Source: Ascidia mentula
Lineage: Eukaryota > Chordata > Ascidiacea > Phlebobranchia > Ascidiidae
Assembly: GCA_947561715.1 (NCBI GenBank)
Contig: OX387199.1
Coordinates: forward strand, 21,271,001-21,335,000
DNA: 64,000 bases
Direction of reading: 5' to 3'
Below are positions 1 through 64,000 of this stretch, piece after piece (position 1 is the first letter of the stretch; the number at the start of each line of letters is the position of its first letter). The translations under genes and the position numbers were made by a program. The notes beneath the pieces were generated by a model, which was not told the DNA's origin, did not search any database, and was given only the letters and a program-made list of their open reading frames with translations.

Positions 1-3000
1 ATCGGTTTTTTGAAAACAACTCAATATACTGAATGGAAAACTACCCCTACTACGTTCAAAAAACCTAACTTTCAATTTACAAAATGCTAATATGCGCTTG
101 CCTCACATCCAAGCTGGTGCTCCGCTACACCATTGAACAATTCCACAACATTGCGACATACGTGAATATGACAAATGCCGTCGGTAAAAAGAGGAACTAA
201 TGTTGTAATGGTGTTGGTCGTGGAATGAATACAACGTTATAATGATGACGTAACGCTAATTGGTGGAGGCATTTAGTGTTAAATGGGCCGTTGGAAATGG
301 TTGAAGCAAAATCTAATTTGCTTCCGGCTCTGAAAACCCTGCTTGAGCTTCAAAGCACACAAGGTAACTTGCGATATAATTATTTTTGCACGGCTTACGT
401 TTTCACATTACATGATCCAAAAATAGTTAGTAATTTTTTAATTTAGGTAATGTGTCGATGAAATATGACTTTGCGTTACACGACATAAACAACCCAATAA
501 AAGTAAGTCTGCAGCAAACCTCGATTAGTGGCCCGATACAGTACATCTTTAATACATTTGTCAACGTAGGAATAGTCGCTGACTAGAACGACATACGCGA
601 CACAGACACACTAATCTGTTAAACCTAACAGTATTCGTTTTAGAAACTTGCCATTTTACCAAGTTGAAAGACGCGTAATCGCGAAAAATCATAATTGATC
701 GCATTAGTTATGTTTGTCGGTGCTTCGAAAAGTTGCGGAATGATAAAGAAATACACATAAAATAATCGTGACCTTCTCGGTGCCAAATGAACTACTAAAG
801 CACACTTATCGTAGAGGGATTGATAGACTGTCGTGCCTCACCACCAAACCTTACAAGTAATCTCTGCGCTATCGTCATCGACGCTCCATAACGAAGCAAC
901 AAAGTCGGCAATATTGTATATTTAAAAACCCTTAATTCGTATTTCGAGGCGCTGTTTACAATGCGTTAATATATGGTTAGATGTTGCATTTCAATGCTGG
1001 TTCGCTACTTTGGAAAGCTAACGAAAACGAAAAGACCAAAATCACGTGGTTGCTCTCAAGTTATTTGTGCAATTTATACACAAAGTTACGCATTTTTCAA
1101 ACCTTCTCCAAACCACACACAAACGAGAGAGCGTCAATTAAACCTAACCTTAAATAACTAGGCAGTGAGTTCTTTCATAATTGCACAACGTTATTCAGAC
1201 CCTTATTTGTTCTGATTTGTTTGGGAATTTCTACAAAACACTTTGAAAATTCTGAGAATACAGAGGCTGGCCAAAACTGTTGTTAACATTGTCATGTTTC
1301 ATGTACGAAAATCATTTCGGCAAGAACTTATCTCATTATCAGTTTGAATGACGCGGTTGGTGCAGCTCCATCATTGTATGGATCCAACCTGACTGACGTC
1401 AAAGACTTTAAAAATATTCTAGAATCATTTTGCAGTTTGGTTATCGTTTTTTTAAAAACAACTCAAGATGCTGAAAGGAAAACTACACTAACTATATTTG
1501 GAAAACCAAATTTTTAATTTACAAAATTCTAATATACGTTTGCCTCACATCCAAGCTTGTACACTTGTACACCATTGAACAATTCCACAACATTGCGACA
1601 TAAGAAAATATGACAACTGCCGTCGGTAAAAACGGGAACTAATGTTGTGATGGTGTTGGTCGTGGAATGAATACAACGTTGTAATTATGACGTAACGGTA
1701 ATTGGTGGAGGCATTAAGTGTTATATGGGCCGTTGGAAATAGTTGAAGCAAAATCTAATTTGCTTCCGGATCTAAAAACCCTGCTTGAACTTCAAAGCAC
1801 ACAAGGTAACTTGCGATATAATTATTTTTGCACGGCTTACGTTTTCACATTGCATGATCTAAAAATAGTCAGTAATTATTGTAATCTAGGTGAAGTGTCG
1901 ATAAAATATGACCTAGTGTTACACGACATATAAACAACCCAATAAAAGTAAGTCTGCAGCAAACCTCGATTAGTGGCCCGATACAGTACATCTTTAATAC
2001 ATTTGTCAACGTAGGAATAGTCGCTGACTAGAACGACATACGCGACACAGACACACTAATCTGTTAAACCTAACAGTATTCGTTTCAGAAACTTGCCATT
2101 TTACCAAGTTGAAGGACGCGTAATCGCGAAAAATCATAATTGATCGCATTAGTTATGTTTGTCGGTGCTTCGAAAAGTTGCGGAATGATAAAGAAATACA
2201 CATAAAATAATCGTGACCTTCTTGGTGCCAAATGAACTACAAAAGCACACTTATCGTAGAGGGATTGATAGACTAACGTACTTCACCAAACCTTACAAGT
2301 AATCTCTGTGCTATCGTCATCGACGCTCCATAACGAAGCAACAAAGTGGGCAATATTGTATATTTAAAAACCCTTAATTCGTATTTCGAGGCGCTGTTTA
2401 CAATGCGTTAATATATGGTTAGATGTTGCATTTCAATGCTGGTTGGCTACTTTGGAAAGCTAACCAAAACGAAAAGACCAAAATCACGTGGTTGCTCTCA
2501 AGTTATTTGTGCAATTTATACACAAAGTTACGCATTTTTCAAACCTTTTCCAAACCACAACAAACGAGAGAGCGTCAATTAAACCTAACCTTAAATAACT
2601 AGGCAGTGAGTTCTTTCATAATTGCACAACGTTATTCAGACCCTTATTTGATCTGATTTGTTTTGGATTTTTTGCAAAACATTTCAAAAATTCTGAGAAT
2701 ACTGAGGCTGGCCAAAACTGTTAACATTGTCGTGTTTCATGTACGAAAAACATTTCGGCAAGAACTTATCCCATCATCAGTTTGAATGACGCGGTTGGTG
2801 CAGCTCCATCATTGTATGGATCTAACCTGACTGACGTCAAAGACTTCAAAATATTCTTGGAACATTTTGCAGTTTTGTCATCGGTTTTTTAAAAACAACT
2901 CAATATACTGAATGGAAAACTACCCCTACTACGTTCAAAAAACCTAACTTTCAATTTACAAAATTCTAATATGCGCTTGCCTCACATCCAAGCTGGTGCT

Positions 3001-3089
3001 CCGCTACACCATTGAACAATTCCACAACATTGCGACATACGTGAATATGACAAATGCCGTCGGTAAAAAGAGGAACTAATGTTGTAATG

Positions 3090-3160
3090 TGTATAAGCTG
3101 CAGACAGATGGCCACTGTTTCGACCTAAAAGGTCTCATCAGTGCAGCTAATGTTGTAATG
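3090..3160 (-). mobile_element. 57-bp ribozyme-only insertion with 14-bp target duplication
   Basis: Only this monomer of the array carries these extra 71 bp. The sequence CTAATGTTGTAATG occurs at 3,076-3,089 and again at 3,147-3,160, while every other monomer has it once. The 57 bp between the copies (3,090-3,146) are foreign and consist almost entirely of a hammerhead ribozyme on the minus strand. This is the signature of insertion by a staggered cut. The edges are ambiguous by a base or two because the ribozyme stem I ends in the same AG/CT as the target. No poly(A) tail is seen. Confidence 0.88.
3096..3148 (-). ncRNA. Hammerhead ribozyme, complete type I fold
   Basis: Read on the minus strand. 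Stem I is AGCUGCA paired with UGCAGCU (7 bp, perfect). Next come core CUGAUGA, stem II GACCU/AGGUC closed by UUU, core GAA, stem III ACAG/CUGU with a 7-nt loop, then C17 at the cleavage site. All invariant nucleotides (C3 U4 G5 A6, G8 A9, G12 A13 A14, the A15.1-U16.1 pair, H17) are present. Self-cleavage is predicted between the bases complementary to 3,103 and 3,102. Stem I is open to the flanks, which defines type I. In animals such ribozymes are known from Penelope-like elements, satellites and retrozymes. Activity here is inferred, not shown. Confidence 0.9.
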
Positions 3161-6100
3161 GTGTTGGTCGTGGAATGAATACAACGTTATAATGATGACG
3201 TAACGTTAATTGGTGGAGGCATTAAGTGTTAAATGGGCCGTTGGAAATGGTTGAAGCAAAATCTAATTTGCTTCCGGCTCTGAAAACCCTGCTTGAACTT
3301 CAAAGCACACAAGGTAACATGCGATATAATTATTTTTGCACGGCTTACGTTTTCACATTACATGATCCAAAAATAGTTAGTAATTTTTTAATTTAGGTAA
3401 TGTGTCGATGAAATATGACTTTGCGTTACACGACATAAACAACCCAATAAAAGTAAGTCTGCAGCAAACCTCGATTAGTGGCCCGATACAGTACATCTTT
3501 AACACATCTGTCAACGTAGGAATAGTCGCTGACTAGAACGACATACGCGACACAGACATCCTGATCTGTTAAACCTAACAGTATTCGTTTCAGAAACTCG
3601 CCATTTTACCAAGTTGAAGGGCGCGTAATCGCGAAAAATCATAATTGATCGCATTAGTTATGTTTGTCGGTGCTTCGAAAAGTTGCGGAATGATAAAGAA
3701 ATACACATAAAATAATCGTGACTTTCTCGGTACCAAATGAACTACTAAAGCACACTTATTGTAGAGGGATTGATAGACTGTCGTGCCTCACCACCAAACC
3801 TTACAAGTAATCTCTGCGCTATCGTCATCGACGCTCCATAACGAAGCAACAAAGTGGGCAATATTGTATATTTAAAAACCCTTAATTCGTATTTCGAGAC
3901 GCTGTTTACAATGCGTTAATATATGGTTAGATGTTGCATTTCAATGCTGGTTGGCTACTTTGGAAAGCTAACGAAAACGAAAAGACCAAAATCACGTGGT
4001 TGCTCTCAAGTTATTTGTGCAATTTATACACAAAGTTACGCATTTTTCAAACCTTCTCCAAACCACACACAAACGAGAGAGCGTCAATTAAACCTAACCT
4101 TAAATAATTAGGCAGTGAGTTCTTTCATAATTGCACAACGTTATTCAGACCCTTATTTGTTCTGATTTGTTTGGGAATTTCTACAAAACACTTTGAAAAT
4201 TCTGAGAATACAGAGGCTGGCCAAAACTGTTGTTAACATTGTCATGTTTCATGTACGAAAATCATTTCGGCAAGAACTTATCTTATTATCAGTTTGAATG
4301 ACGCGGTTGGTGCAGCTCCATCATTGTATGGATCCAACCTGACTGACGTCAAAGACTTTAAAAATATTCTAGAATCATTTTGCAGTTTGGTTATCGTTTT
4401 TTTAAAAACAACTCAAGATGCTGAAAGGAAAACTACACTAACTACATTTGGAAAACCAAATTTTTAATTTACAAAATTCTAATATACGCTTGCCTCACAT
4501 CCAAGCTTGTACACTTGTACACCATTGAACAATTCCACAACATTTCGACATAAGAAAATATGACAACTGCCGTCGGTAAAAAGAGGAACTAATGTAGTGA
4601 TGGTGTTGGTCGTGGAATGAATACAACGTTGTAATTATGACGTAACGGTAATTGGTGGAGGCATTGCGTGTTAAATGGGCCGTTGGAAATGGTTGAAGCA
4701 AAATCTAATTTGCTTCCGGCTCTGAAAACCCTGCTTGAACTTCAAAGCACACAAGGTAACTTGCGATATAATTATTTTTGCACGGCTTACGTTTTCACAT
4801 TGCATGATCTAAAAATAGTTAGTAATTTTTGTAATCTAGGTGAAGTGTCGATAAAATATGACCTAGTGTTACACGACATAAACAACCCAATAAAAGTAAG
4901 TCTGCAGCAAACCTCGATTAGTGGCCCGATACAGTACATCTTTAATACATCTGTCAACGTAGGAATAGTCGCTGACTAGAACGACATACGCGACACAGAC
5001 ATCCTGATCTGTTAAACCTAACAGTATTCGTTTCAGAAACTCGCCATTTTACCAAGTTGAAGGACGCATAATCGCGAAAAATCATAATTGATCGCATTAG
5101 TTATGTTTGTCGGTGCTTCGAAAAGTTGCGGAATGATAAAGAAATACACATAAAATAATCGTGACTTTCTCGGTACCAAATGAACTACTAAAGCACACTT
5201 ATCGTAGAGGGATTGATAGACTGTCGTGCCTCACCACCAAACCTTACAAGTAATCTCTGCGCTATCGTCATCGACGCTCCATAACGAAGCAACAAAGTCT
5301 GCAATATTGTATATTAAAAAAACCCTTAATTCGTATTTCGAGGCGCTGTTTACAATGCGTTAATATATGGTTAGATGTTGCATTTCAATGCTGGTTGGCT
5401 ACTTTGGAAAGCTAACGAAAACGAAAAGACCAAAATCACGTGGTTGCTCTCAAGTTATTTGTGCAATTTATACACAAAGTTATGCATTTTTCAAACCTTC
5501 TCCAAACCACACACAAACGAGAGAGTGTTAATTAAACCTAACCTTAAAAACTAGGAGGCAGTGAGTTCTTTCATAATTGCACAACGTTATTCAGACCCTT
5601 ATTTGTTCTGATTTGTTTTGGATTTTTTGCAAAACACTTTGAAAATTCTGAGAATACTGAGGCTGGCCAAAACTGTTGTTAACATTGTCATGTTTTATGT
5701 ACGAAAAACATTTCGGCAAGAACATATCCCATTATCAGTTTGAATGACGCGGTTGGTGCAGCTCCATCATTGTATGGATCTAACCTGACTGACGTCAAAG
5801 ACTTCAAAATATTCTTGGAACATTTTGCAGTTTTGTCATCGGTTTTTTGAAAACAACTCAATAAACTGAATGGAAAACTACCCCTACTACGTTCAAAAAA
5901 CCTAACTTTCAATTTACAAAATGCTAATATGCGCTTGCCTCACATCCAAGCTGGTGCTCCGCTACACCATTGAACAATTCCACAACATTGCGACATACGT
6001 GAATATGACAAATGCCGTCGGTAAAAAGAGGAACTAATGTTGTAATGGTGTTGGTCGTGGAATGAATACAACGTTATAATGATGACGTAACGCTAATTGG

Positions 6101-9100
6101 TGGAGGCATTAAGTGTTAAATGGGCCGTTGGAAATGGTTGAAGCAAAATCTAATTTGCTTCCGGCTCTGAAAACCCTGCTTGAATTTCAAAGCACACAAG
6201 GTAACTTGCGATATAATTATTTTTGCACGGCTTACGTTTTCACATTACATGATCTAAAAATAGTTAGTAATTTTTTAATTTAGGTAATGTGTCGATGAAA
6301 TATGACTTTGCGTTACACGACATAAACAACCCAATAAAAGTAAGTCTGCAGCAAACCTCGATTAGTGGCCCGATACAGTACATCTTTAATACATTTGTCA
6401 ACGTAGGAATAGTCGCTGACTAGAACGACATACGCGACACAGACATCCTGATCTGTTAAACCTAACAGTATTCGTTTTAGAAACTCGCCATTTTACCAAG
6501 TTGAAGGACGCGTAATCGCGAAAAATCATAATTGATCGCATTAGTTATGTTTGTCGGTGCTTCGAAAAGTTGCGGAATGATAAAGAAATACACATTATAT
6601 AATCGTGACCTTCTCGGTGCCAAATGAACTACTAAAGCACACTTATTGTAGAGGGATTGATAGACTGTCGTGCCTCACCACCAAACCTTACAAGTAATCT
6701 CTGTGCTATCGTCATCGACGCTCCATAACGAAGCAACAAAGTGGGCAATATTGTATATTTAAAAACCCTTAATTCGTATTTCGAGACGCTGTTTACAATG
6801 CGTTAATATATGGTTAGATGTTGCATTTCAATGCTGGTTCGCTACTTTGGAAAGCTAACGAAAACGAAAAGACCAAAATCACGTGGTTGCTCTCAAGTTA
6901 TTTGTGCAATTTATACACAAAGTTACGCATTTTTCAAACCTTCTCCAAACCACACACAAACGAGAGAGCGTCAATTAAACCTAACCTTAAATAATTAGGC
7001 AGTGAGTTCTTTCATAATTGCACAACGTTATTCTGACCCTTATTTGTTCTGATTTGTTTGGGAATTTCTACAAAACACTTTGAAAATTCTGAGAATACTG
7101 AGGCTGGCCAAAACTGTTGTTAACATTGTCATGTTTCATGTACGAAAAACATTTCGGCAAGAACTTATCTCATCATCAGTTTGAATGACGCGGTTGGTGT
7201 AGCTCCATCATTGTTTGGATCTAACCTGACTGACGTCAAAGACTTTAAAAATATTCTAGAATCATTTTGCAGTTTGGTCATCGGTTTTTTAAAAACAACT
7301 CAAGATGCTGAAAGGAAAACTACACTAACTACATTTGGAAAACCAAATTTTTAATTTACAAAATTCTAATATACGCTTGCCTCACATCCAAACTTGTACA
7401 CTTGTACACCATTGAACAATTCCACAACATTGCGACATAAGACAATATGACAACTGCCGTCGGTAAAAAGAGGAACTAATGTAGTGATGGTGTTGGTCGT
7501 GGAATGAATACAACGTTGTAATTATGACGTAACGGTAATTGGTGGAGGCATTGCGTGTTAAATGCGCCGTTGGAAATGGTTGAAGCAAAATCTAATTTGC
7601 TTCCGTCTCTGAAAACCCTGCTTGAACTTCAAAGCACACAAGGTAACTTGCGATATAATTATTTTTGCACGGCTTACGTTTTCACATTGCATGATCTAAA
7701 AATAGTTAGTAATTTTTGTAATCTAGGTGAAGTGTCGATAAAATATGACCTAGTGTTACACGACATAAACAACCCAATAAAAGTAAGTCTGCAGCAAACC
7801 TCGATTAGTGGCCCGATACAGTACATCTTTAATACATTTGTCAATGTAGGAATAGTCGCTGACTAGAACGACATACGCGACACAGACACACTAATCTGTT
7901 AAACCTAACAGTATTCGTTTTAGAAACTCGCCATTTTACCAAGTTGAAGGACGCGTAATCGCGAAAAATCATAATTGATCGCATTAGTTATGTTTGTCGG
8001 TGCTTCGAAAAGTTGCGGAATGATAAAGAAATACACATAAAATAATCGTGACCTTCTCGGTGCCAAATGAACTACAAAAGCACACTTATCGTAGAGGGAT
8101 TGATAGACTGTCGTGCCTCACCAAACCTTACAAGTAATCTCTGCGCTATCGTCATCGACGCTCCATAACGAAGCAACAAAGTCGGCAATATTGTATATTT
8201 AAAAACCCTTAATTCGTATTTCGAGGCGCTGTTTACAATGCGTTAATATATGGTTAGATGTTGCATTTCAATGCTGGTTGGCTACTTTGGAAAGCTAACG
8301 AAAACGAAAAGACCAAAATCACGTGGTTGCTCTCAAGTTATTTGTGCAATTTATACACAAAGTTACGCATTTTTCAAACCTTCTCCAAACCACACACAAA
8401 CGAGAGAGCGTCAATTAAACCTAACCTTAAATAACTAGGCAGTGAGTTCTTTCATAATTGCACAACGTTATTCAGACCCTTATTTGTTCTGATTTGTTTG
8501 GGAATTTCTACAAAACACTTTGAAAATTCTGAGAATACAGAGGCTGGCCAAAACTGTTGTTAACATTGTCATGTTTCATGTACGAAAATCATTTCGGCAA
8601 GAACTTATCTCATTATCAGTTTGAATGACGCGGTTGGTGCAGCTCCATCATTGTATGGATCCAACCTGACTGACGTCAAAGACTTTAAAAATATTCTAGA
8701 ATCATTTTGCAGTTTGGTTATCGTTTTTTTAAAAACAACTCAAGATGCTGAAAGGAAAACTACACTAACTACATTTGGAAAACCAAATTTTTAATTTACA
8801 AAATTCTAATATACGCTTGCCTCACATCCAAGCTTGTACACTTGTACAACATTGAACAATTCCACAACATTGCGACATAAGAAAATATGACAACTGCCGT
8901 CGGTAAAAAGAGGAACTAATGTAGTGATGGTGTTGGTCGTGGAATGAATACAACGTTGTAATTATGACGTAACGGTAATTGGTGGAGACATTGCGTGTTA
9001 AATGGGCCGTTGGTAAATGGTTGAAACAAAATCTAATTTGCTTCCGGCTCTGAAACCCCTGCTTGGCGTTCAAAGCACACAAAGTAACTTGCGAAACACT

Positions 9101-13543: not shown

Positions 13544-16500
13544 TGTTTATTAGTTATGTAACGAATTTTATTTACTCCAGTTATTGTTATTGTTTGTATT
13601 TCATTGTTTTCACCTTTCTTCCTGTCACCTTGTAATTTCACTGTTTTCTTTCGTTGGTACCACTTTATTTAATATATTGTTTTACCCACGCATATTGCTT
13701 TTAAGTCTCGCACTTCACTTATTTTCACCACACTATTTTATTACCTTCGTCTCCCCTCCCTTTCCTATTATTTAACGCTCCGCTTATTTTTGTATGCCCC
13801 GGATGTGCCGGCGTCGCGTTGGTAACACCTCTAGTACAGTATTGTGTGTGAGCAATCGGGATCTTGGCCAGTAACGTTTCGTATTGTTTTTAATCGTCTT
13901 AATTTAACACGACGTCCAATAAGTTAAATCAGCCTGGGTTACTTTGGCTTTGTGGTGAGCCGTTAATGCAGGGTTCTTGGCAGTATCAGAATTAGGGAGG
14001 CAGTTTTGTGAAAAGTACCGAATTAGGTAGAAGGGTTAATTGGGGAATAATATCGCCACCCAAAAACACCTAACCGCTTAATTGCAAAGCTGCCGAAATA
14101 ATTCCGTAACAACTTGGCGAGCACGCCAGGACCCTGTCACCACACCCGGCTGGTTTTACAGGGAAGACTCCCTACGTGTATTTTGTTTTATGATATTTTA
14201 AAGGTTGGTTTTTCTTAAAAATGGCTTTTAATGTTTTAATGCAACCTCCGCCTTTACGGTCGGGAGATGACCTAGGACCGTATTTTAATGTATTTGAGTC
14301 ACATTGTACGAGCGTCGAGGCCTCAGAAGAAATGAAACCACACATGTTCCTGGCAAGCGTTGACAACGACTTGAAATGGACAATACAAGAAAAGACGCAA
14401 ACTTGTTCGAGGTTTCCTACAAGGACCTCAAAGAACGCGCATTGCGCCAAAGGGCTACTGGTCAACACGCAGAGCGTCAACGCGCCGAGCTGGTAAGGCG
14501 CGTGCAATTACCTGGCGAATCCGCACGTGAATTCGTTTACGCCCTACAGACACTGCTGGGCGATGGTGCCTACAGAAACTCCGCTGACGCTGCCCTTAAA
14601 AATGAGGTTCTGTACGCTACCTTACTGCAAGGCTTGCAAGACCGGCGCCTCGCGGACACTATCCCGAATACCATCAAATATGAGCGATCATTCAGAGCCG
14701 CAGCTCAACTCGTTGTCAATACACAAACACCGAGCTTTGTCCAAGTCGCTGCGGTAAACACAAAAGCATCAGAGGTGGGATTAGTGCTAAAAAAGTTAGA
14801 AGACATGGAGAAACGTTCCAAGAAAAAGAAGCACAACTCGAGGACACCTTATCGAAGTCAAAGCTCAATTGGATGCCATAAAGCGCAAACGACCACAGTA
14901 CAACAACGTGCGAACACGGACTTGCTATGGTTGCGGTGGACGACTGCCCGCACACGGGTATGCGCGCAAGGGACGTCAACACGAGACGTCAAAACATACC
15001 ACGTACGCCTTCGTTTTCCAGATTGATTCCTCGCGCACCGGAGATAAAATGTCACTACGACCAAAAACGTATAGCTCGAGATGCACCAAAATGTTTGGCG
15101 CCAAAGTCGGTGCAAAAATCCGCTACACCCGCCGCGCCGTTGCGGTTTGTCAACTTATTGGTCGGCCAGACGAGGATCTGTGCGTTGTTGGACACCGGCT
15201 CCAGTGTCTGCTTGATTAATACCCTAAAGTGGCATTCCTTAAGCGCCGAGCAGCACGACCAGGTAAACAGGTGCTCAAAGAAGAACTTAGTCGGGGCCGA
15301 CGGACAGCAATTGGCGGTAAAAGGCTGCGTCGAGCTTCCCCTCCGAGTGGGAGGATTGATGACTCACGCGAGTTTTTACATTCTAGACAATCTTACGCAC
15401 GACCTTATTCTAGGATTAGATTTCCTCCAGTCAAACAAATGCCAGATCTGCTACGAAGCCAACGTGCTAACAACAGGGGATGCAAGCGTGCTACTCTCGC
15501 ATTCTCCGGTGCCGTTGCCACAACCTTCCGAGGTGTACGTCGTCGACGATGTCACCATCCCCGCGTTTACCGAGGTATGTGTAACAGCAAACTTTTGCCA
15601 AAAGCCGCACACCAGGGAAACCCCTTTTCTAACTGAGAAGATAGACGGGTTTGTGGAAAAAAATGGGTTGTTGACGGCTAAGAGTATGACGATGGCGCAG
15701 AGTAACACTGTTGGGGTCTATGGCGCGAATTTGGGGGACGAAGCGGTATAAATACCAAGCGGGTCAAGGATCGCCCAGGCATCGCCTGTTTAGGTTATGC
15801 CTTTGGCAATGTCGAATGTCCAATGTCTGGCGCATGTGTGGTAGTCGATGGATCGTCGGCGAAATGTAAACACCCGGATTGTTTTGGCGGCTGCGCAGAA
15901 ATTTGTTCGGTGTCGCCACACAAAACAGCGGATTACGGTGACCCGTTTAAGTGCATTATAGAGCAAGCTCAGATCGGAAACCACCTAACTGAAGAACAAA
16001 GAGAAGAGCTGTTTGCCTTTCTTCGCGCCAACCAGGACGCCTTCTCAACATCTGACGTTGACCTGGGACGCACGGACGTGGTGCGTCACGTGATCGACAC
16101 AGGAAATAACGCTCCAGTGCGACAGCCACCCCGCCGCATGCCCCACAACAACAAGGCGAAAGTGGAAGAGATTTTGGCAGAAATGGACAAACAAGGACTG
16201 ATTCGGCCGTCTAAATCGCCGTGGAGCAGTCCGATCGTGTTGGTTCGGAAGAAATCCGGTGAGACTCGTTTTTGTGTCGATTATCGCAAGCTAAACGAGC
16301 TAACTAAAAAGAACAGATATCCGATCCCCCGGATAGATGACAGCCTAGACCAAATGTCGAACGCGGCGTATTTTTCTACGCTAGACCTGAAATCTGGCTC
16401 TTTGGCAGGTCGCTATCAATGCCCCTTCGCAAGAGAAAACTGCGTTTACCAGTCACGTCGGCCTGTTTGAATTTAACGTAATGCCTATGGGTCTATGTAA

Positions 16501-36527: not shown

Positions 36528-37950
36528 CTAAGACAAAGATTCGTGTGACGCAACAACGGCACATTGAGTTGACTTAAAAAGGCACGAGTAACGTTCAATG
36601 ATTCTATCCGTAGGGTGCTTCAACTGATGTACGTCAACAGTACAGGAGGCTACAGCCTTCCCCATCGGATTAAATTCCTCCGGAACATCAGCAGCATTTA
36701 GCGGTTGCGATGGCCAGTTGGTTTCTGACTCCAGGAGAAACATTGGACCTTTTAACCAGCGACTCGAATTGACAAGGGCATCAGCGGGCAGACCTCTGGA
36801 GGCATCATCTGCGGGATTTAATTTTGTAGGAACGTGTATCCAATTCGTAATGTCCGCCAGTCGCTCAATCACTGCCAGGCGATTGGCGACAAAAACTGGA
36901 AACCGTTTGGTTGCATTTCGAATGCTTAACAGAACAGCAGTGGAATCACTTCAGAAAACTGAAGTTTCAATGGGCAAGTCTAGTTCCTTTCTCATGAGGC
37001 GATCCAACCTCGCAGCGAGCACAGCAACGGTGAGCTCCAGCCGAGGGATCGTCTTCGTGTTCAACGGGGCAAGTCGGGATTTTCCAATCAGAAAAGAACA
37101 CATCACTGTCCTGTTATTGTCTTCGATGCAAAGATATGACACGGCGCCATACGCATACTTAGATGCGTTAGCGAAATGATGCAGTTGATACTTCAATGGA
37201 GGTTTCAGTTTCCAAGACCTGAAGCAACTTGGAACGACAACATTGCTTAAGTGAGGCAACTCAGCAAGCCACCTCTTCCAGTAATCGGAAATCCAATCCG
37301 GAATGTCGTCATCCCAATTTAGTTCCAATCTGCACAAGTCCTGCAGCAATAACTTGGCCCTTAGAATCACGGGAGATACGAAACCCAGAGGGTCGTAAAG
37401 TGAACTGACAGCTGAAAGGATTCCTCTACGCGTGTTTCCCTTGATGTGGGTATGTCGAATACTGATGTCCCGTCGCCAAAAACGCTCTTCCACAAACACG
37501 CTATCTCCCGTTGGAACATGACTTGCGCAACCTTCAGAAGACGGACATGTGCTTGGCTCCTTGCAGACGAACCAAGTGCGGGACCAAAGAGTGACCAGCC
37601 AAGAGATGTCTTTACAGCACAAGGGGTCCCCTGCGGTCCAGAACGTGTATACATTGTACGTTGAAGGCTGCAGGAGTATAAGCTCCGATCAGTATCGGCA
37701 CAGTTCCCCCTTCCAAACGACGCAGGGGCAACTCCTGGAGGTGATTGGACTCGGCAAGCTTTTTCGCATCTGGGATCCTATTCGGCGACACGGGAATTTT
37801 GTCGATGGATAGCACTTCCGGCAACAACAACGGCTCTCCGTCATCGAGCGGCATGACTGTGAAAGATACAGTGGAGCCTTGGTACACTCGCGATTGATCT
37901 GTCAAAGTGCTCAGACAATTTTTTCGATCCTTGGATTGCAGACCAAGTTT
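36528..37950 (-). mobile_element. BEL/Pao retrotransposon pol remnant, broken
   Basis: A fossil on the minus strand, read right to left. First is a retropepsin-region piece (LIGAYTPAAFN near 37,690), then VKTSLGWSLFGP (about 37,600). Next comes the region after the reverse transcriptase, with LSAVSSLYDPLGFVSPVILR (about 37,400) and IPRLELTVAVLAARLDRLM (about 37,020). Last is the RNase H tail with WIHVPTKLNPADDASRGL (about 36,820). These are hallmarks of the BEL/Pao family, which is confined to animals. Most of the reverse transcriptase, the integrase and gag were not seen, and there are several breaks. A TGTTGC...GCAACA-bounded stretch at 36,155-36,213 could be part of an LTR, but this is uncertain. 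Confidence 0.88.
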
Positions 37951-38682
37951 ATCAATCAGATCTTGTTCGCAAAATTCCCAACCTTTTTTTCTCCAATTTA
38001 CACCCTGGAAGTCTTGGAAGATTAAACCCTCACTAATTTTGCAAAATAATAATAAGGAAAGAGAGGTTTTGAAATACGTACCCGAACGTACAGTGAAAAG
38101 TTCGCAAATATCTTGCTTACAAAATTACCCCCAAGTTATGTCAAATTTACCCCCGGTTGGGCACCACTGGTTCAGGGTATCAATATTCTTTTGTGTGTAA
38201 ACAAGCGCTTTCCCGTCCTGCTGTATACTGTGAATGTTTTTATTGCCAGTTGTACGCAACAGCTTCTGAAAGCGTTGTTTGGAACCAACCTTGTGAGCCA
38301 GAGAGGATAGTCTGCGGATAATTTATCGGGAAGCAAATCCTCCCTCGTATCACCGAGAACCAACAGTAACTCCAACGAATTCAAAACTTCATTTTACCAC
38401 CAGGTTCGATTCTCAACCCAGTCACACTAAATAAAAACAAATTGAGGACAACTTAAATAAATAATATTATTGCCTCCACATTGCTTATCATATGATTATT
38501 GTAACACGGGGCCTGACGGCACTATTGGTTGAAAATTACTTGGCCATAGTGTTTCCACCTTGTTTTCTCCGTAAAGTTGCACCAAGTTTGGTGCCCAACG
38601 GATGACGGTGATTGTATAGTCACCACAAAGTGGAAGTCTTTGCTTGGCCGTTTGGTCAGCAAAGTCGTCTGAAAGTCACACC
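37951..38682. other. No gene recognised
   Basis: The flank of the BEL/Pao remnant. A 70-codon minus-strand frame (38,172-38,384, starts MNSLELLLVLGDTREDLL) might be a further worn piece of the same element, but I see no diagnostic motif. Confidence 0.3.
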
Positions 38683-38735
38683 AGCTGCACTGATGAAACC
38701 TTATAGATCAAAACAGTGGCCATCTGTATGCAATT
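38683..38735 (+). ncRNA. Decayed hammerhead ribozyme, relative of the 3,096 copy
   Basis: Same length (53 nt) and clearly homologous: AGCTGCA, CTGATGA, then a stem II remnant, then ACAGTGGCCATCTGT identical to the intact copy, and TGCA of stem I; TTTACACA follows, as TTATACACA does there. Stem II no longer pairs well and the GAAA core reads AAAA, so G12 is lost and cleavage is not expected. It lies on the plus strand. Confidence 0.78.
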
Positions 38736-41156
38736 TACACAATTCGTATGATAGGCTCCACTTTGCTTAACAGAGAATGACGTTCTATGCAGTATCGTCA
38801 GCAGGTGGGCAGGAACAAAAAGTCGTTGTCAGAAACTTTGCCGGTTGTCGAACTTCTCGTTTACAATTTCTTGGCACTGTGGAGTTTTTGTCACTCACAA
38901 AGTCATTTTAACTCAGGTCTTATCAGGGATCGTTTGGATTGAATTTAAACTCTAGAATCTAAAACAGTTCGCTGTTTCGTTCAGTTTGGTCTTTATTATC
39001 GACCATAAAAATGATGCTATGGCGTTCAACATTAAGGTGAAAATTAAGGAATCAAAGAGACATTTGAACTGTGAAGTTTTCAAGTTCGCAACAAACGCAG
39101 TATGTTTAACACTTGTTGCGTTTTAATGCGTGTTCTTCTGTAAACTCCGTAATCCGACACCAATCAGGTAAACAATTTTGTATTAAGATGGCTGAAACGT
39201 ACGGCAGCAGTCCAAATGAAACCACAAGCAGAAATGGAATGGAATGGAATAATCATGCAAGCCAATGTGGCCCATATAAAGCATGAACACAAGTCACAAG
39301 TACCCGCTAGGCATGTCAGGGCGGACCAACAGGTTGCGGCACTTTATAGTCCTTTATTGTTTTAGAGCCAGGGCGGTCGTTGTTTAAAGGTCTGTAATTA
39401 TTACTCTACCACGTTTAGTTTGACCTTTGTACGTGGAAACCCGGTCACGAATATAAACAGTTCCAATATTACAATTTTCATATTAATATACACTGTGTTC
39501 GCTACACACTCAACAAAAGTGCACACGTTGATCTCTATCGCCGCTGGTGCCACCAGTTTTATATTTGTATTGCCACTATGTGCTCTGTCGTCGTGTTGTT
39601 TTAAATGCGAGCCAGATGACTCTTCGACCTCAAAAACAATGCGTTTGTGTGTGAATTGGACGACTGGGGTTATTAATTTGGTTGGTGAGAATTTGTCGGT
39701 TAACTTGTTCATTAAATAACCGCATACAAGCAATAGGAGAACAACAGACACAAACAGAAGAGAGATATTCGTAACTCCCTTTCAATCCGTTGCATCACCG
39801 GATTCTCTCATCTCCATTCATTAGCCAAATCGCATCCTTTAGTATGTATGACACTATGGTATCACAATATGATAGGAGAATACTATATGAAAACATTTCT
39901 TAATTTGCTACGAGAATATAATGCCTGGTAAAGCAATAAATTTAGAAATAGAAATAAAATTAGAGACAAAAGGTCAATAGTTGTTATGTCACAAGTGCCA
40001 ACCTTTGGACTGGACTAACAGGCACGTAAGTGTTTACCCAAGTCCCAGTTGAAATGTATGCAGAAGATAGCATTCAGGCAAATATGTAACGTTACATCAA
40101 CTACATGCGGCAGCATGAGCAAAATAATTATGATTTACATGGCTTTGTGGTTTCAAAAATTTTGTATACTTTTCAAATATTGTCTAATTGTGCTTTTAGT
40201 TTTAAATGTTTCAAACGGTTTCTTCGCAAACGCAACTCTCATCTCATCAGTTACAAAAAATTTAAAGGTATGGAAAAAGCGAACCCCGATTTCACAAATA
40301 CTGTGATAGATTATAACTTCTAAACAAAAACCAATGAGTTGCGCAATGTTTTTGACCATATTCATATATTCTTCGCTATTTCAGATTCAACTGAGTCCGA
40401 CGTTGACCCGACAACAAATCAAACGAAAGGAAAATAAACGAACATTTACAAATTGTCGTTATTCCTCATATTTTCTCCAAACATTCTTGCATTTTGTTTT
40501 CTTGAAACGCCTACGTCACTGTCGATGACGATTTTTATGCGTAGCAGAATTATTCTAGCACGCGCGAATAAAATGGTTCACACGGTTTACAATCTTTTGA
40601 AAACTTTGGGCACCCCTGATATCAGTAATACTTCTACCATTGTATTTATAGACAATCTTTTGAGTGTGGGTAACAAAATACAATGAATTCTTAGGCTAAA
40701 AAGCCGATGGTGTAAGAAGGAAACCCTCCAGATGATACCAAGTTCTTTTAAGTTTTAAACCATCACTTGGGCGCGAAGCACTGAGTAATGTACATACTTC
40801 TTCGTAGCATCGTCGCGCTTTACCCTGCTGTAAAATTTTAAAGGTTTATAATTAATTATTGACCAGAACAACCATAGCCTATGTAAATAGTTCGATGCGT
40901 TTGCTGTGTGAGGACTAGCTTATGTAAGTTTGCATCAAAGTGCTGCTGACCAGATTTCATCGGTAAGCAACATCTATTTGGAGCAGTTTTTGCTTCGATA
41001 GACACCCAGAAAATTAATAAATTTTTTGCTTCCTACCAGGTTATACGGGTGAGGTTTTACTATTGTTTGTAATTGCGTGGTCAGGGAGGTTAAGTCGTGA
41101 GGCCTGCAAAAATGTCACGATCAGTTTGCAACCAAACCAAAAACACCATTACCTGC
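38736..41156. other. No gene firmly recognised; weak exon-like frames
   Basis: Short frames only. 39,401-39,751 is open on both strands; the minus frame starts with a hydrophobic MSVVLLLLVCGYLM that could be a signal peptide. At 40,049-40,306 (plus) there is a hydrophobic run KYCLIVLLVLNVSNGFF. A frame at 40,453-40,686 ends the same neighbourhood, with a possible splice acceptor TATTTCAG before 40,386. None matches a family I can name. Confidence 0.25.
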
Positions 41157-47640: not shown

Positions 47641-48313
47641 GAGACATTAAAAAGGTAACATTTAAAAATAGTTCTATTACAAGAGGTATATAAAACGTAT
47701 ACGTGTATACACTTGTATGTCGAGCCTTTTGAAACACGCAAATTAATTCATTTTTAATTTGGCGAATGCGGCGTGGCGTTGCTAATCGTGCGTTTATTTG
47801 TCTTCCAACAAGGGTCATTTATTTGGGATGGCTTCTTGTAAACGAGACTTCCCAGGGTTAGCTTCTCGATAACCACGTTTGGTTCTGAGATGGTTAATTT
47901 TAAAATGCAATCTGTTATTTTTATTGCCTATTACGCAAATTATGCACTGTATGTATTAAAGAAAGGCGCAACACCGTATAAGAGTTATCTTATGTTTGCC
48001 TTTAGTGTCTTAATCAGAATAAAAGCACGTGACACAACAGAAACTGAAAATTTATATGACTAAAATCTATGTGAGGGCAGTGAACAGGAAATCGAATGCG
48101 GCGAAAACGAAATACATAATGTTGTGATATATTGACGCAATGCTGAAAATACATCACTGCAGTGTCACCTTCTTATGTGACGCTATTTAACGTGATGGAT
48201 TGCAAAATAATTAGTGACAGTAAGGAGAAAATGGCAGATATCATGCGTCATCGGTCGCTAAATGAGGCAGCAATTGCGAGTAGTTCTTCCGATTGCGACA
48301 TCATTAGTATATT

Positions 48314-48434
48314 AGTGGTTTTATATTAATATAGCAGTGGTTTTATATTTTTATATAAGTGGTTTTATATTAATATATAATTGATTTTATAATAATATAT
48401 AAGTGGTTTTATATTAATATATCAGTGGTATTAC
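48314..48434 (+). repeat. AT-rich minisatellite, ~22-24 bp unit, five copies
   Basis: AGTGGTTTTATATTAATATA repeats with small changes. The equivalent places in the next two C units (about 52,620 and 57,228) have only one copy, so it expanded in this unit alone. Confidence 0.9.
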
Positions 48435-63457: not shown

Positions 63458-63974
63458 ATGTCGTCTGCGGAAGGCGGTAAGTAGGTTCTCTTACATTGTT
63501 GGCGAACCCCAATGAAGCAAAAACTGTTTCGGTTATTTCAAGCATATGTTTTTTTCAAGAACACAGCGGTACTGGACAACAACACAAAGCTATACAAATA
63601 GTCCGACCGAGTTCCCAACAAGACAACATTTATGAAATCGATGCTGATGAACTTGAACGAATATTTGGACATTCAAGTGTGGCCAACAAACCGGTTGCAA
63701 TCTATTCAATCGCTGGAGTTTTTAGAGGAGGAAAATCACTGATGTTAAATTTCTTCCTCCGTTATTTGTGGGCGAAAAAAAATAATAAAGTAAAAATATA
63801 TCAAAAATTAGTGGTAACCGTTTTAAATGTCGCTTGTAACAGTCAGATTCATGGCTTGATTCCAAAGAAGATGAACTGGTGGCAGGATTTCCATGGCGAG
63901 GTGGTAACGAGGGACACACACAAGGAATTTGGATTTGGGATGAGCCGTTTTTCATTGATACACCACATACACAA
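63458..63974 (+). CDS. Atlastin/GBP-type dynamin-like GTPase, copy 2, cut by window end
   Basis: Exons 63,458-63,476, 63,560-63,789 and 63,843-63,974, with introns of 83 and 53 bp, splice positions and phases identical to copy 1. Starts MSSAEG, then EHSGTGQQHKAIQIVRPSS. The P-loop AGVFRGGKSLMLNFFLRYL is intact, and WLDSKEDELVAGFPWRGG follows the second intron. Exon 4 with the DSQG motif lies beyond the window. Differences from copy 1 are scattered over coding and intron sequence, and the reading frame is open in both. The ~150-bp 5' flank is also shared, so the duplication included the promoter region. Confidence 0.85.
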
Positions 63975-64000
63975 GTAATGATCAAATTTGATGGTTGTGG

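What the first reader, a model, noticed from the sequence alone, without database searches (positions are those of the whole stretch)
3076..3160. A complete hammerhead ribozyme inserted alone, with a 14-bp target-site duplication
Seen directly: one satellite monomer out of many carries 57 extra bp flanked by CTAATGTTGTAATG on both sides. The insert is essentially only a canonical type I hammerhead (7-bp stem I, intact CUGAUGA and GAA core, paired stems II and III, C17). Known animal carriers of hammerheads (Penelope-like elements, retrozymes of a few hundred nt) are much larger. A ribozyme-sized mobile insert would be a minimal retroelement or a severely shortened terminal fragment. The insert's ends lie in stem I rather than at the cleavage site, as expected if a circular or uncleaved RNA was copied.
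Basis: partly seen in the sequence, partly recalled or inferred. Interest (0 to 1): 0.92.

Follow-up and report, generated by a model that had tools for sequence, protein, structure and literature searches.

The report
Truncated retrozyme copy: bare hammerhead ribozyme
The 57-bp insert is a real copied-in hammerhead ribozyme, but it is the cut-short end of a known kind of tiny mobile element (a retrozyme) present in hundreds of copies, and the way those copies are inserted points to Penelope-like retrotransposons as the machinery that moves them.

Summary
In detail: 57 bp (3090-3146) between exact 14-bp repeats, absent from sister satellite monomers that show the single-copy empty site, and carrying a full hammerhead core on the minus strand (3148-3096). 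It is probably not a ribozyme-sized element in its own right. The same 3' end occurs at 977 places in this 196-Mb animal genome. In longer copies the hammerhead is the 3' end of a ~284-285-nt non-coding unit, sometimes tandem: a metazoan non-LTR retrozyme. An older, nearly full-length copy lies in this window at 38464-38772. The insert belongs to a continuum of 5'-truncated copies, one of them (50 nt, 12-bp duplication) shorter than the ribozyme.

The wider result is the insertion signature. Most sampled copies end at one of two 3' sites about 30 nt apart. Insertions with two inverted arms combined one of each in 17 of 17 cases of a contiguous sample, with 3' ends outward and duplications mostly of 12-15 bp. 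This resembles the published signature of Penelope-like elements, which this genome also holds in the same outward arrangement. It supports, without proving, that Penelope-like enzymes mobilise metazoan retrozymes, a link that the papers I read only propose.

The parts
3076..3089 (.). target-site duplication, left copy (CTAATGTTGTAATG)
   Evidence: exact repeat; single copy in sister monomers 148-273 and 5985-6110. 2 bp at each end are ambiguous with the element (TG of the 3' end, CT of stem I), so the unambiguous duplication is 10 bp
3090..3146 (-). 57-bp insert: 5'-truncated retrozyme copy consisting of the hammerhead plus the 3' terminal CTTATACA(CA)
   Evidence: window 3148-3088 is 100% identical to the last 61 nt of the 284-nt yardstick unit
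3147..3160 (.). target-site duplication, right copy
3096..3148 (-). hammerhead ribozyme: stem I 3142-3148/3096-3102, CUGAUGA 3135-3141, stem II 3130-3134/3122-3126, GAA 3119-3121, stem III 3115-3118/3104-3107, C17 3103, predicted cleavage between 3103 and 3102
   Evidence: read directly from the sequence and laid out; activity not tested
38464..38772 (+). older, nearly full-length copy of the same retrozyme, with a decayed hammerhead core and a tail-type 3' end
   Evidence: 91.0% identical over 312 columns to the yardstick unit; no duplication found (best repeat 7 bp, inside the element)
1995..3486 (.). satellite monomer that received the insert; ordinary spacing 1,443-1,445 bp
   Evidence: spacing

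Best explanation
The insert is a strongly 5'-truncated genomic copy of a metazoan non-LTR retrozyme, a ~284-285-nt non-coding retroelement with a type I hammerhead. Retrozyme RNA that was intact across the cleavage site (circle or uncleaved transcript) was reverse-transcribed at a staggered cut in the satellite monomer. Synthesis started at a fixed AC-rich site 15 nt 3' of the cleavage site (CUUAUACACA), copied back through the hammerhead and stopped after about 59-61 nt. The 5' junction formed at a two-base match (AG/CT), and filling the staggered cut made the 10-14-bp duplication. The enzyme was most likely that of a Penelope-like element. Shown: family, unit, fixed 3' ends, duplications, empty site, tandem and inverted forms. 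Inferred: circular template, enzyme identity, ribozyme activity.
For: Family: 977 places match the 3'-terminal 26-mer with at most 1 mismatch, reversed-pattern control 0; 668 exact copies of the 30-mer at the ribozyme's 5' side, control 0; 2,440 hammerhead-core matches, control 1. Unit: four head-to-tail hammerheads exactly 285 nt apart in L030 and about 285-nt spacing at C1:3332780-3334206. A longer copy in this window. Contiguous sample: 54 copies from C1:75506-14808050, where one search lists 56 places (identical units collapsed). 3' ends lie 0-6 nt past CTTATACACA in 25, 24-44 nt past it in 21, 14 nt in 2, and run on into further unit sequence in 6; exact duplications of 11 or more in 29 of 54, against 2.9% reaching 10 in mismatched pairings. 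5' ends range from 26 nt, the floor set by the search pattern, to several units. Penelope-type layout: of 27 tail-less ends, 21 have a duplication of 9 or more; 13 of these have an inverted second arm, and all 13 arms start at tail position 26-33, none at the tail-less site. Of 20 tail-type ends, 16 have a duplication; 9 have an inverted arm and all 9 start within 2 nt of the tail-less site. That is 17 different insertions, 17 mixed. Neighbouring opposite-strand copies within 1 kb: 3' ends outward 10, inward 0; GIY-YIG places within 6 kb: outward 17, inward 0 (from the listings). Partner: 121 GIY-YIG matches, frames up to 892 aa (150 of 382 candidates scored); at three of these a stretch like the reverse-transcriptase motif of L105 lies ~0.9 kb upstream in the same open frame (C71:19.83 Mb, C72:17.90 Mb, C70:5.90 Mb). 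Published Penelope features: optional 31-bp tail on one of the inverted terminal repeats, head-to-head arrangement most frequent (PMC3846280, passages); two start sites that delimit a 30-40-bp tail, AC-rich start, AT-rich targets, both strands cut and extended (PMC11167929, parts 1-3 of 4).
Against: Rfam models do not reach their cut-offs. None of the four GIY-YIG places on C1 below 5.97 Mb has a strict hammerhead-core match nearby; the nearest is 17 kb off. In vitro the Penelope protein showed no difference in start site between the two strands and did not need ribozyme cleavage (PMC11167929), which gives no direct support to a rule of one start per strand. PMC3846280 explains the head-to-head form by self-priming on an antisense template instead. 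6 of 27 tail-less and 4 of 20 tail-type ends lack a duplication of 9 or more. Other reverse transcriptases abound: 150 of 1,254 candidates scored, all 150 listed above cut-off. No RNA data were available.
Confidence: 0.85

Rival explanations
1. A minimal mobile element: the ribozyme alone, as a ~57-nt RNA or circle, is mobilised as a unit.
For: Several independent insertions with duplications hold little more than the ribozyme (window, L114, L112). In the 54-copy sample 5' ends at 58-62 nt look somewhat common: 9 rows, of which 3 are copies of one older locus and 1 (L104) is an internal jump.
Against: 5' ends are spread over the whole unit, including a 50-nt insert without a full core that has a 12-bp duplication (L069). 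Counts beside the edge are alike: departure from the unit just after GTGCAG 27, after GTGCAGCT 36, after GTGCAGCTG 25, against 668 copies of the stem sequence. Of those 36, I looked at 16 (all 14 with A or C next, 2 of 22 with T): 6 are full units with a point change, 4 are inverted or internal jumps, 1 is an older variant, and the rest are ribozyme-edge insertions (the window's insert and its duplicate, L019, L114, L034). The neighbouring positions were not broken down. No same-strand spacing near 57 appears among the places listed.
Confidence: 0.05
2. The short form arose by deletion inside a longer inserted copy.
For: Longer copies are the commoner form among the loci I held.
Against: The duplication directly abuts the short insert on both sides and the empty site is intact; an internal deletion ending exactly at the duplication would be a coincidence, repeated in L114.
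Confidence: 0.04
3. It is a 5'-truncated copy of an autonomous Penelope-like element with a hammerhead, not of a retrozyme.
For: GIY-YIG elements are present and share the outward layout.
Against: The sequence upstream of the hammerhead in longer copies is the 284-nt unit, tandem at 285 nt. The one Penelope remnant next to copies (L105) carries them as two separate insertions with their own 10- and 12-bp duplications.
Confidence: 0.06
4. The retrozyme is mobilised by a LINE rather than by a Penelope-like enzyme.
For: Variable 5' truncation, microhomology at the 5' junction and duplications also fit LINE-type insertion, and inverted copies can arise there by twin priming (recalled). Many other reverse transcriptases are present.
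Against: The copies end in CTTATACACA or its ~30-nt tail rather than a poly(A) run. Two fixed starts about 30 nt apart and mixed inverted arms match the Penelope tail described in print and are not a LINE trait that I know of (recalled).
Confidence: 0.12

Closest known systems
Metazoan non-LTR retrozymes (Cervera and de la Pena 2020, PMC7229834)
   Same: Type I hammerhead, non-coding tandem units within the reported ~170-400 nt, low G+C, duplications longer than 4 bp
   Different: The window copy is a single truncated fragment. Loop 1-loop 2 contacts of the hammerhead were not examined. The two 3' ends and the mixed inverted arms are not described in the parts of that paper I read (1-4 of 6)
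Penelope-like elements: Pen2a_Av of Adineta vaga (PMC3846280) and Poseidon of Anolis (PMC11167929)
   Same: Optional ~31-bp tail, inverted head-to-head arrangement with duplications, partial tandems, AC-rich start; the Anolis element also has a hammerhead near the start
   Different: Those are autonomous, with a reverse transcriptase and GIY-YIG ORF; the unit here is ~284 nt
Plant LTR retrozymes (PMC4918200, search listing only; details from PMC7229834 and passages of PMC7761336)
   Same: Non-autonomous, hammerhead-bearing; in plants, circular RNA intermediates
   Different: Type III hammerheads, LTRs and 4-bp duplications there; type I and mostly 12-15-bp duplications here

Membership tests
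Metazoan non-LTR retrozyme (parent family of the insert) | type I hammerhead | tested here: met
   core, three stems and C17 read directly; against: Rfam below cut-off; self-cleavage not testable
Metazoan non-LTR retrozyme (parent family of the insert) | tandem units of about 150-450 bp | tested here: met
   285-nt units in L030 and about 285-nt spacing at C1:3332-3334 kb; the window copy itself is single
Metazoan non-LTR retrozyme (parent family of the insert) | low G+C (below 50% in the text, below 45% in a figure legend) | tested here: met
   47.2% in the 284-nt yardstick: meets the 50% mark, not the 45% one
Metazoan non-LTR retrozyme (parent family of the insert) | duplications longer than 4 bp | tested here: met
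   exact duplications of 11-15 in 29 of 54
Metazoan non-LTR retrozyme (parent family of the insert) | no LTR, PBS or PPT | not tested
   none was searched for
Metazoan non-LTR retrozyme (parent family of the insert) | expressed as linear and circular RNA | not testable with these tools
   no RNA data
Metazoan non-LTR retrozyme (parent family of the insert) | loop 1-loop 2 tertiary contacts of canonical type I | not tested
   contacts not modelled
Penelope-like element | ORF with reverse transcriptase and GIY-YIG endonuclease in the element | tested here: not met
   a 284-nt unit has no room for it; so the element is not itself a Penelope-like element
Penelope-like element (insertion layout) | optional ~31-bp tail on one of two inverted arms | tested here: met
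   17 of 17 inverted insertions mixed; tail position 26-33 in 13 of 13. One counted arm (L094) is only 8 nt; one tail-type end (L105) has an 8-nt match to the tail site 7 nt inside the insert, which I read as chance
Penelope-like element (as mobiliser) | autonomous partner in the same genome | tested here: met
   121 GIY-YIG matches; at three places a stretch like L105's reverse-transcriptase motif lies upstream in the same frame. That the stretch is a Penelope reverse-transcriptase motif is recalled
Penelope-like element (as mobiliser) | partner shares the start/tail sequence of the retrozyme | tested here: inconclusive

The most novel reading that the evidence does not exclude
Metazoan retrozymes are parasites of Penelope-like elements, and each insertion records two reverse-transcription starts on small retrozyme RNA circles: a two-part enzyme cuts both target strands and starts one cDNA at the tail-less site and the other at the tail site. 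That gives inverted, outward-pointing, always mixed arms.
Probability: 0.45. Interest if true: 0.75.

Novelty: new member of a known kind. Interest (0 to 1): 0.5.

Why it matters
On its own the insert is a truncated copy. Its family matters more. Which enzyme moves animal retrozymes is left open in the papers I read, with Penelope-like elements named as a strong candidate (PMC7229834, discussion). Here many near-identical copies with clean target duplications carry a two-start, mixed-arm insertion layout that resembles Penelope's. That makes the question directly testable by counting in genomes, and by an in-vitro assay that already exists for a Penelope protein (PMC11167929).

Tried and rejected
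Rejected: the ribozyme-sized element (5' ends form a continuum, no convincing edge peak); internal deletion; L105 as a Penelope copy carrying this hammerhead (its two copies are separate insertions). Uninformative: Hammerhead_1 in the whole genome (controls rang nowhere); the general reverse-transcriptase family (150 of 1,254 candidates scored; I did not compare its places with the GIY-YIG ones). Weak: covariation.

Results and dropped rows that cut against or limit the reading. Arm identity: in L030 (0-1 differences of 160) and L078 (0-1 of 143) the arms match almost exactly, but in L007, L015, L018 and L092 they differ by 2/83, 1/80, 3/93 and 4/91, near the random-pair mean of 3.1%, so a shared RNA template is suggested only for the two multi-unit arrays. 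One inward pair appears if the neighbour limit is raised from 1 to 2 kb (outward 11, inward 1). The 54-copy sample is contiguous on C1, not random over the genome; both ends of one insertion count as two copies; the search pattern hides copies shorter than 26 nt. For one search I copied the 96 places on C1 of the 100 listed, and all 121. In one search, L061 (9-bp repeat, 1,085-bp insert) is probably a chance repeat; an arm was counted if its score was 8 or more at offset 0-3. The L114, L112, L019 and L034 duplications were read by eye. Not held: PMC4209133, PMC5785218, PMC8557442, so an earlier description of the tail in retrozymes cannot be excluded.

Full report
1. What is there. Between 3076 and 3160 one monomer of a ~1,443-bp satellite carries 57 extra bp (3090-3146) between two exact 14-bp repeats. 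Sister monomers hold the repeat once, in almost identical flanks (148-273 and 5985-6110), so the repeat is a true target-site duplication. Two bases at each end could belong to either side, so the unambiguous duplication is 10 bp. The minus strand from 3148 to 3096 lays out as a type I hammerhead with intact CUGAUGA, GAA and C17. The same insert sits in another monomer 4,390 bp upstream (L002), so it was probably copied along with the satellite.

2. Limits of the ribozyme call. No Rfam model reaches its gathering score; lax scores are 17.8 bits (Hammerhead_3) and 17.6 bits (RAGATH-1), far below the cut-offs. The hammerhead fold is 1.4 kcal/mol above the predicted minimum. Among 59 variants held, core letters are kept in 50-58 and stem cells pair in 845 of 944, with almost no compensatory change. 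The call rests on the exact core, the three stems and the company it keeps. Activity is untested.

3. The parent element. A 64-base query returned 41 matches, 40 of them 100% identical over 61-64 bases, from 775 first-look candidates of which 40 were scored. The 3'-terminal 26-mer has 977 places and the hammerhead-core pattern 2,440. In longer copies the ribozyme is the 3' end of a unit that recurs head to tail at 285 nt (L030). This window holds an older copy of nearly the whole unit at 38464-38772, 91.0% identical, with a decayed core. Unit size, tandem layout, G+C (47.2%), hammerhead type and long duplications place it with the metazoan non-LTR retrozymes of PMC7229834 (read: parts 1-4 of 6).

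4. How short copies arise. In 54 copies from C1:75506-14808050 (56 places listed there), 5' ends range from 26 nt, the floor of the search pattern, to several units. A 50-nt insert without a full ribozyme has a 12-bp duplication (L069). Ribozyme-only or nearly so: window; L114 (11-bp duplication); L112 (13 bp, plus a 16-nt inverted arm); L019 (imperfect); L034 (ribozyme plus tail, apparent 7 bp). Departures from the unit next to the ribozyme edge number 27, 36 and 25, against 668 copies of the stem sequence. Of the 36, I looked at 16: 6 are point changes in full units, 4 inverted or internal jumps, 1 an older variant (L072), and 5 ribozyme-edge insertions, two of them the window's insert and its duplicate. 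These counts show no peak but cannot exclude a small one; in the 54-copy sample 58-62 nt is mildly crowded.

5. The insertion layout. 3' ends fall mostly in two classes: 0-6 nt past CTTATACACA (25 of 54) and 24-44 nt past it (21 of 54); 2 lie at 14 nt and 6 run on into further unit sequence. Of 27 tail-less ends, 21 have an exact duplication of 9 or more; 13 of these have an inverted second arm, starting at tail position 26-33 each time. Of 20 tail-type ends, 16 have a duplication; 9 have an inverted arm, starting within 2 nt of the tail-less site each time. One of the arms is only 8 nt (L094), and one tail-type end (L105) has an 8-nt match to the tail site 7 nt inside its insert, which I read as chance because it lies in directly oriented unit sequence. 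The 30 loci, a sample biased towards the window's own end, add 6 further mixed insertions and none unmixed (25 ends, 16 with a duplication). Opposite-strand neighbours point their 3' ends outward in 10 of 10 pairs within 1 kb (11 of 12 within 2 kb), and GIY-YIG domains do the same in 17 of 17 pairs within 6 kb.

6. What that means. Penelope-like elements are described with an optional 31-bp tail at one of the inverted terminal repeats and a most frequently head-to-head layout (PMC3846280, passages). A purified Penelope protein cuts and extends both strands of an AT-rich target and starts at two sites that delimit this tail (PMC11167929, parts 1-3 of 4). The retrozyme copies here show a like layout. 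The simplest account is that Penelope-like enzymes made them. That is inference. In vitro the start sites did not differ between strands and ribozyme cleavage was not needed, and PMC3846280 prefers self-priming for the inverted form. Partner elements are present: 121 GIY-YIG matches, three of them with a reverse-transcriptase-like stretch ~0.9 kb upstream in the same frame (the motif is recalled). PMC7229834 names Penelope-like elements as a strong candidate. I did not find the tail evidence for retrozymes in print, but three likely papers were not held.

7. Template. The two usual ends lie beyond the cleavage site, so the copied RNA was intact across it. Units within one array are nearly identical (0-1 differences of 160 in the L030 and L078 arrays, random pairs 3.1%), and the arms match almost exactly in these two, as expected from one circular RNA; four other insertions do not show it. 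A multimeric transcript of a homogeneous array would look the same, so a circle is likely but not shown.

8. Verdict. The 'minimal element' reading is not supported; the 'shortened terminal fragment' reading is. The item is a new member of a known kind, with an unusually clear record of how its family is inserted.

Noticed in passing
window 38464-38772 (+): Older, nearly full-length copy of the same retrozyme with a decayed hammerhead and a tail-type 3' end; no duplication found.
   Followed up: yes
window 1-33350, with small pieces near 41.2 and 63.1 kb: Satellite of ~1,443-bp monomers, several complete between 550 and 9251, then broken and diverged pieces.
   Followed up: partly
window 14364-16470 (+) and 36951-38124 (-): Retrotransposon remnants: a weak reverse-transcriptase match at 15706-16470 (RVT_1, below its cut-off) and a Pao-type peptidase at 36951-37688 (PF05380, E 1.3e-42).
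   Followed up: partly
window 63481-63978 (+): Exon-like frame with a guanylate-binding-protein-type domain (PF02263).
   Followed up: no
window 48303-48433: 22-bp tandem repeat, 6 copies.
   Followed up: no
G000 C1:2.0-2.74 Mb (loci L049-L060, L072-L075): Older retrozyme subfamilies lie among repeated loci, many with kinase-like reading frames (named by eye); they may have been duplicated with the genes.
   Followed up: no
G000 C1:1924046/1926856 and 1953760/1956572: Same-strand hammerhead matches about 2.81 kb apart, close to the 2,870-bp period of GIY-YIG places on C67; whether these are Penelope terminal repeats or a local duplication is unknown.
   Followed up: no
G000 C70:19.95-21.0 Mb: Many same-strand matches to the L105 reverse-transcriptase stretch, most with stop codons inside, crowd at one end of C70.
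   Followed up: no
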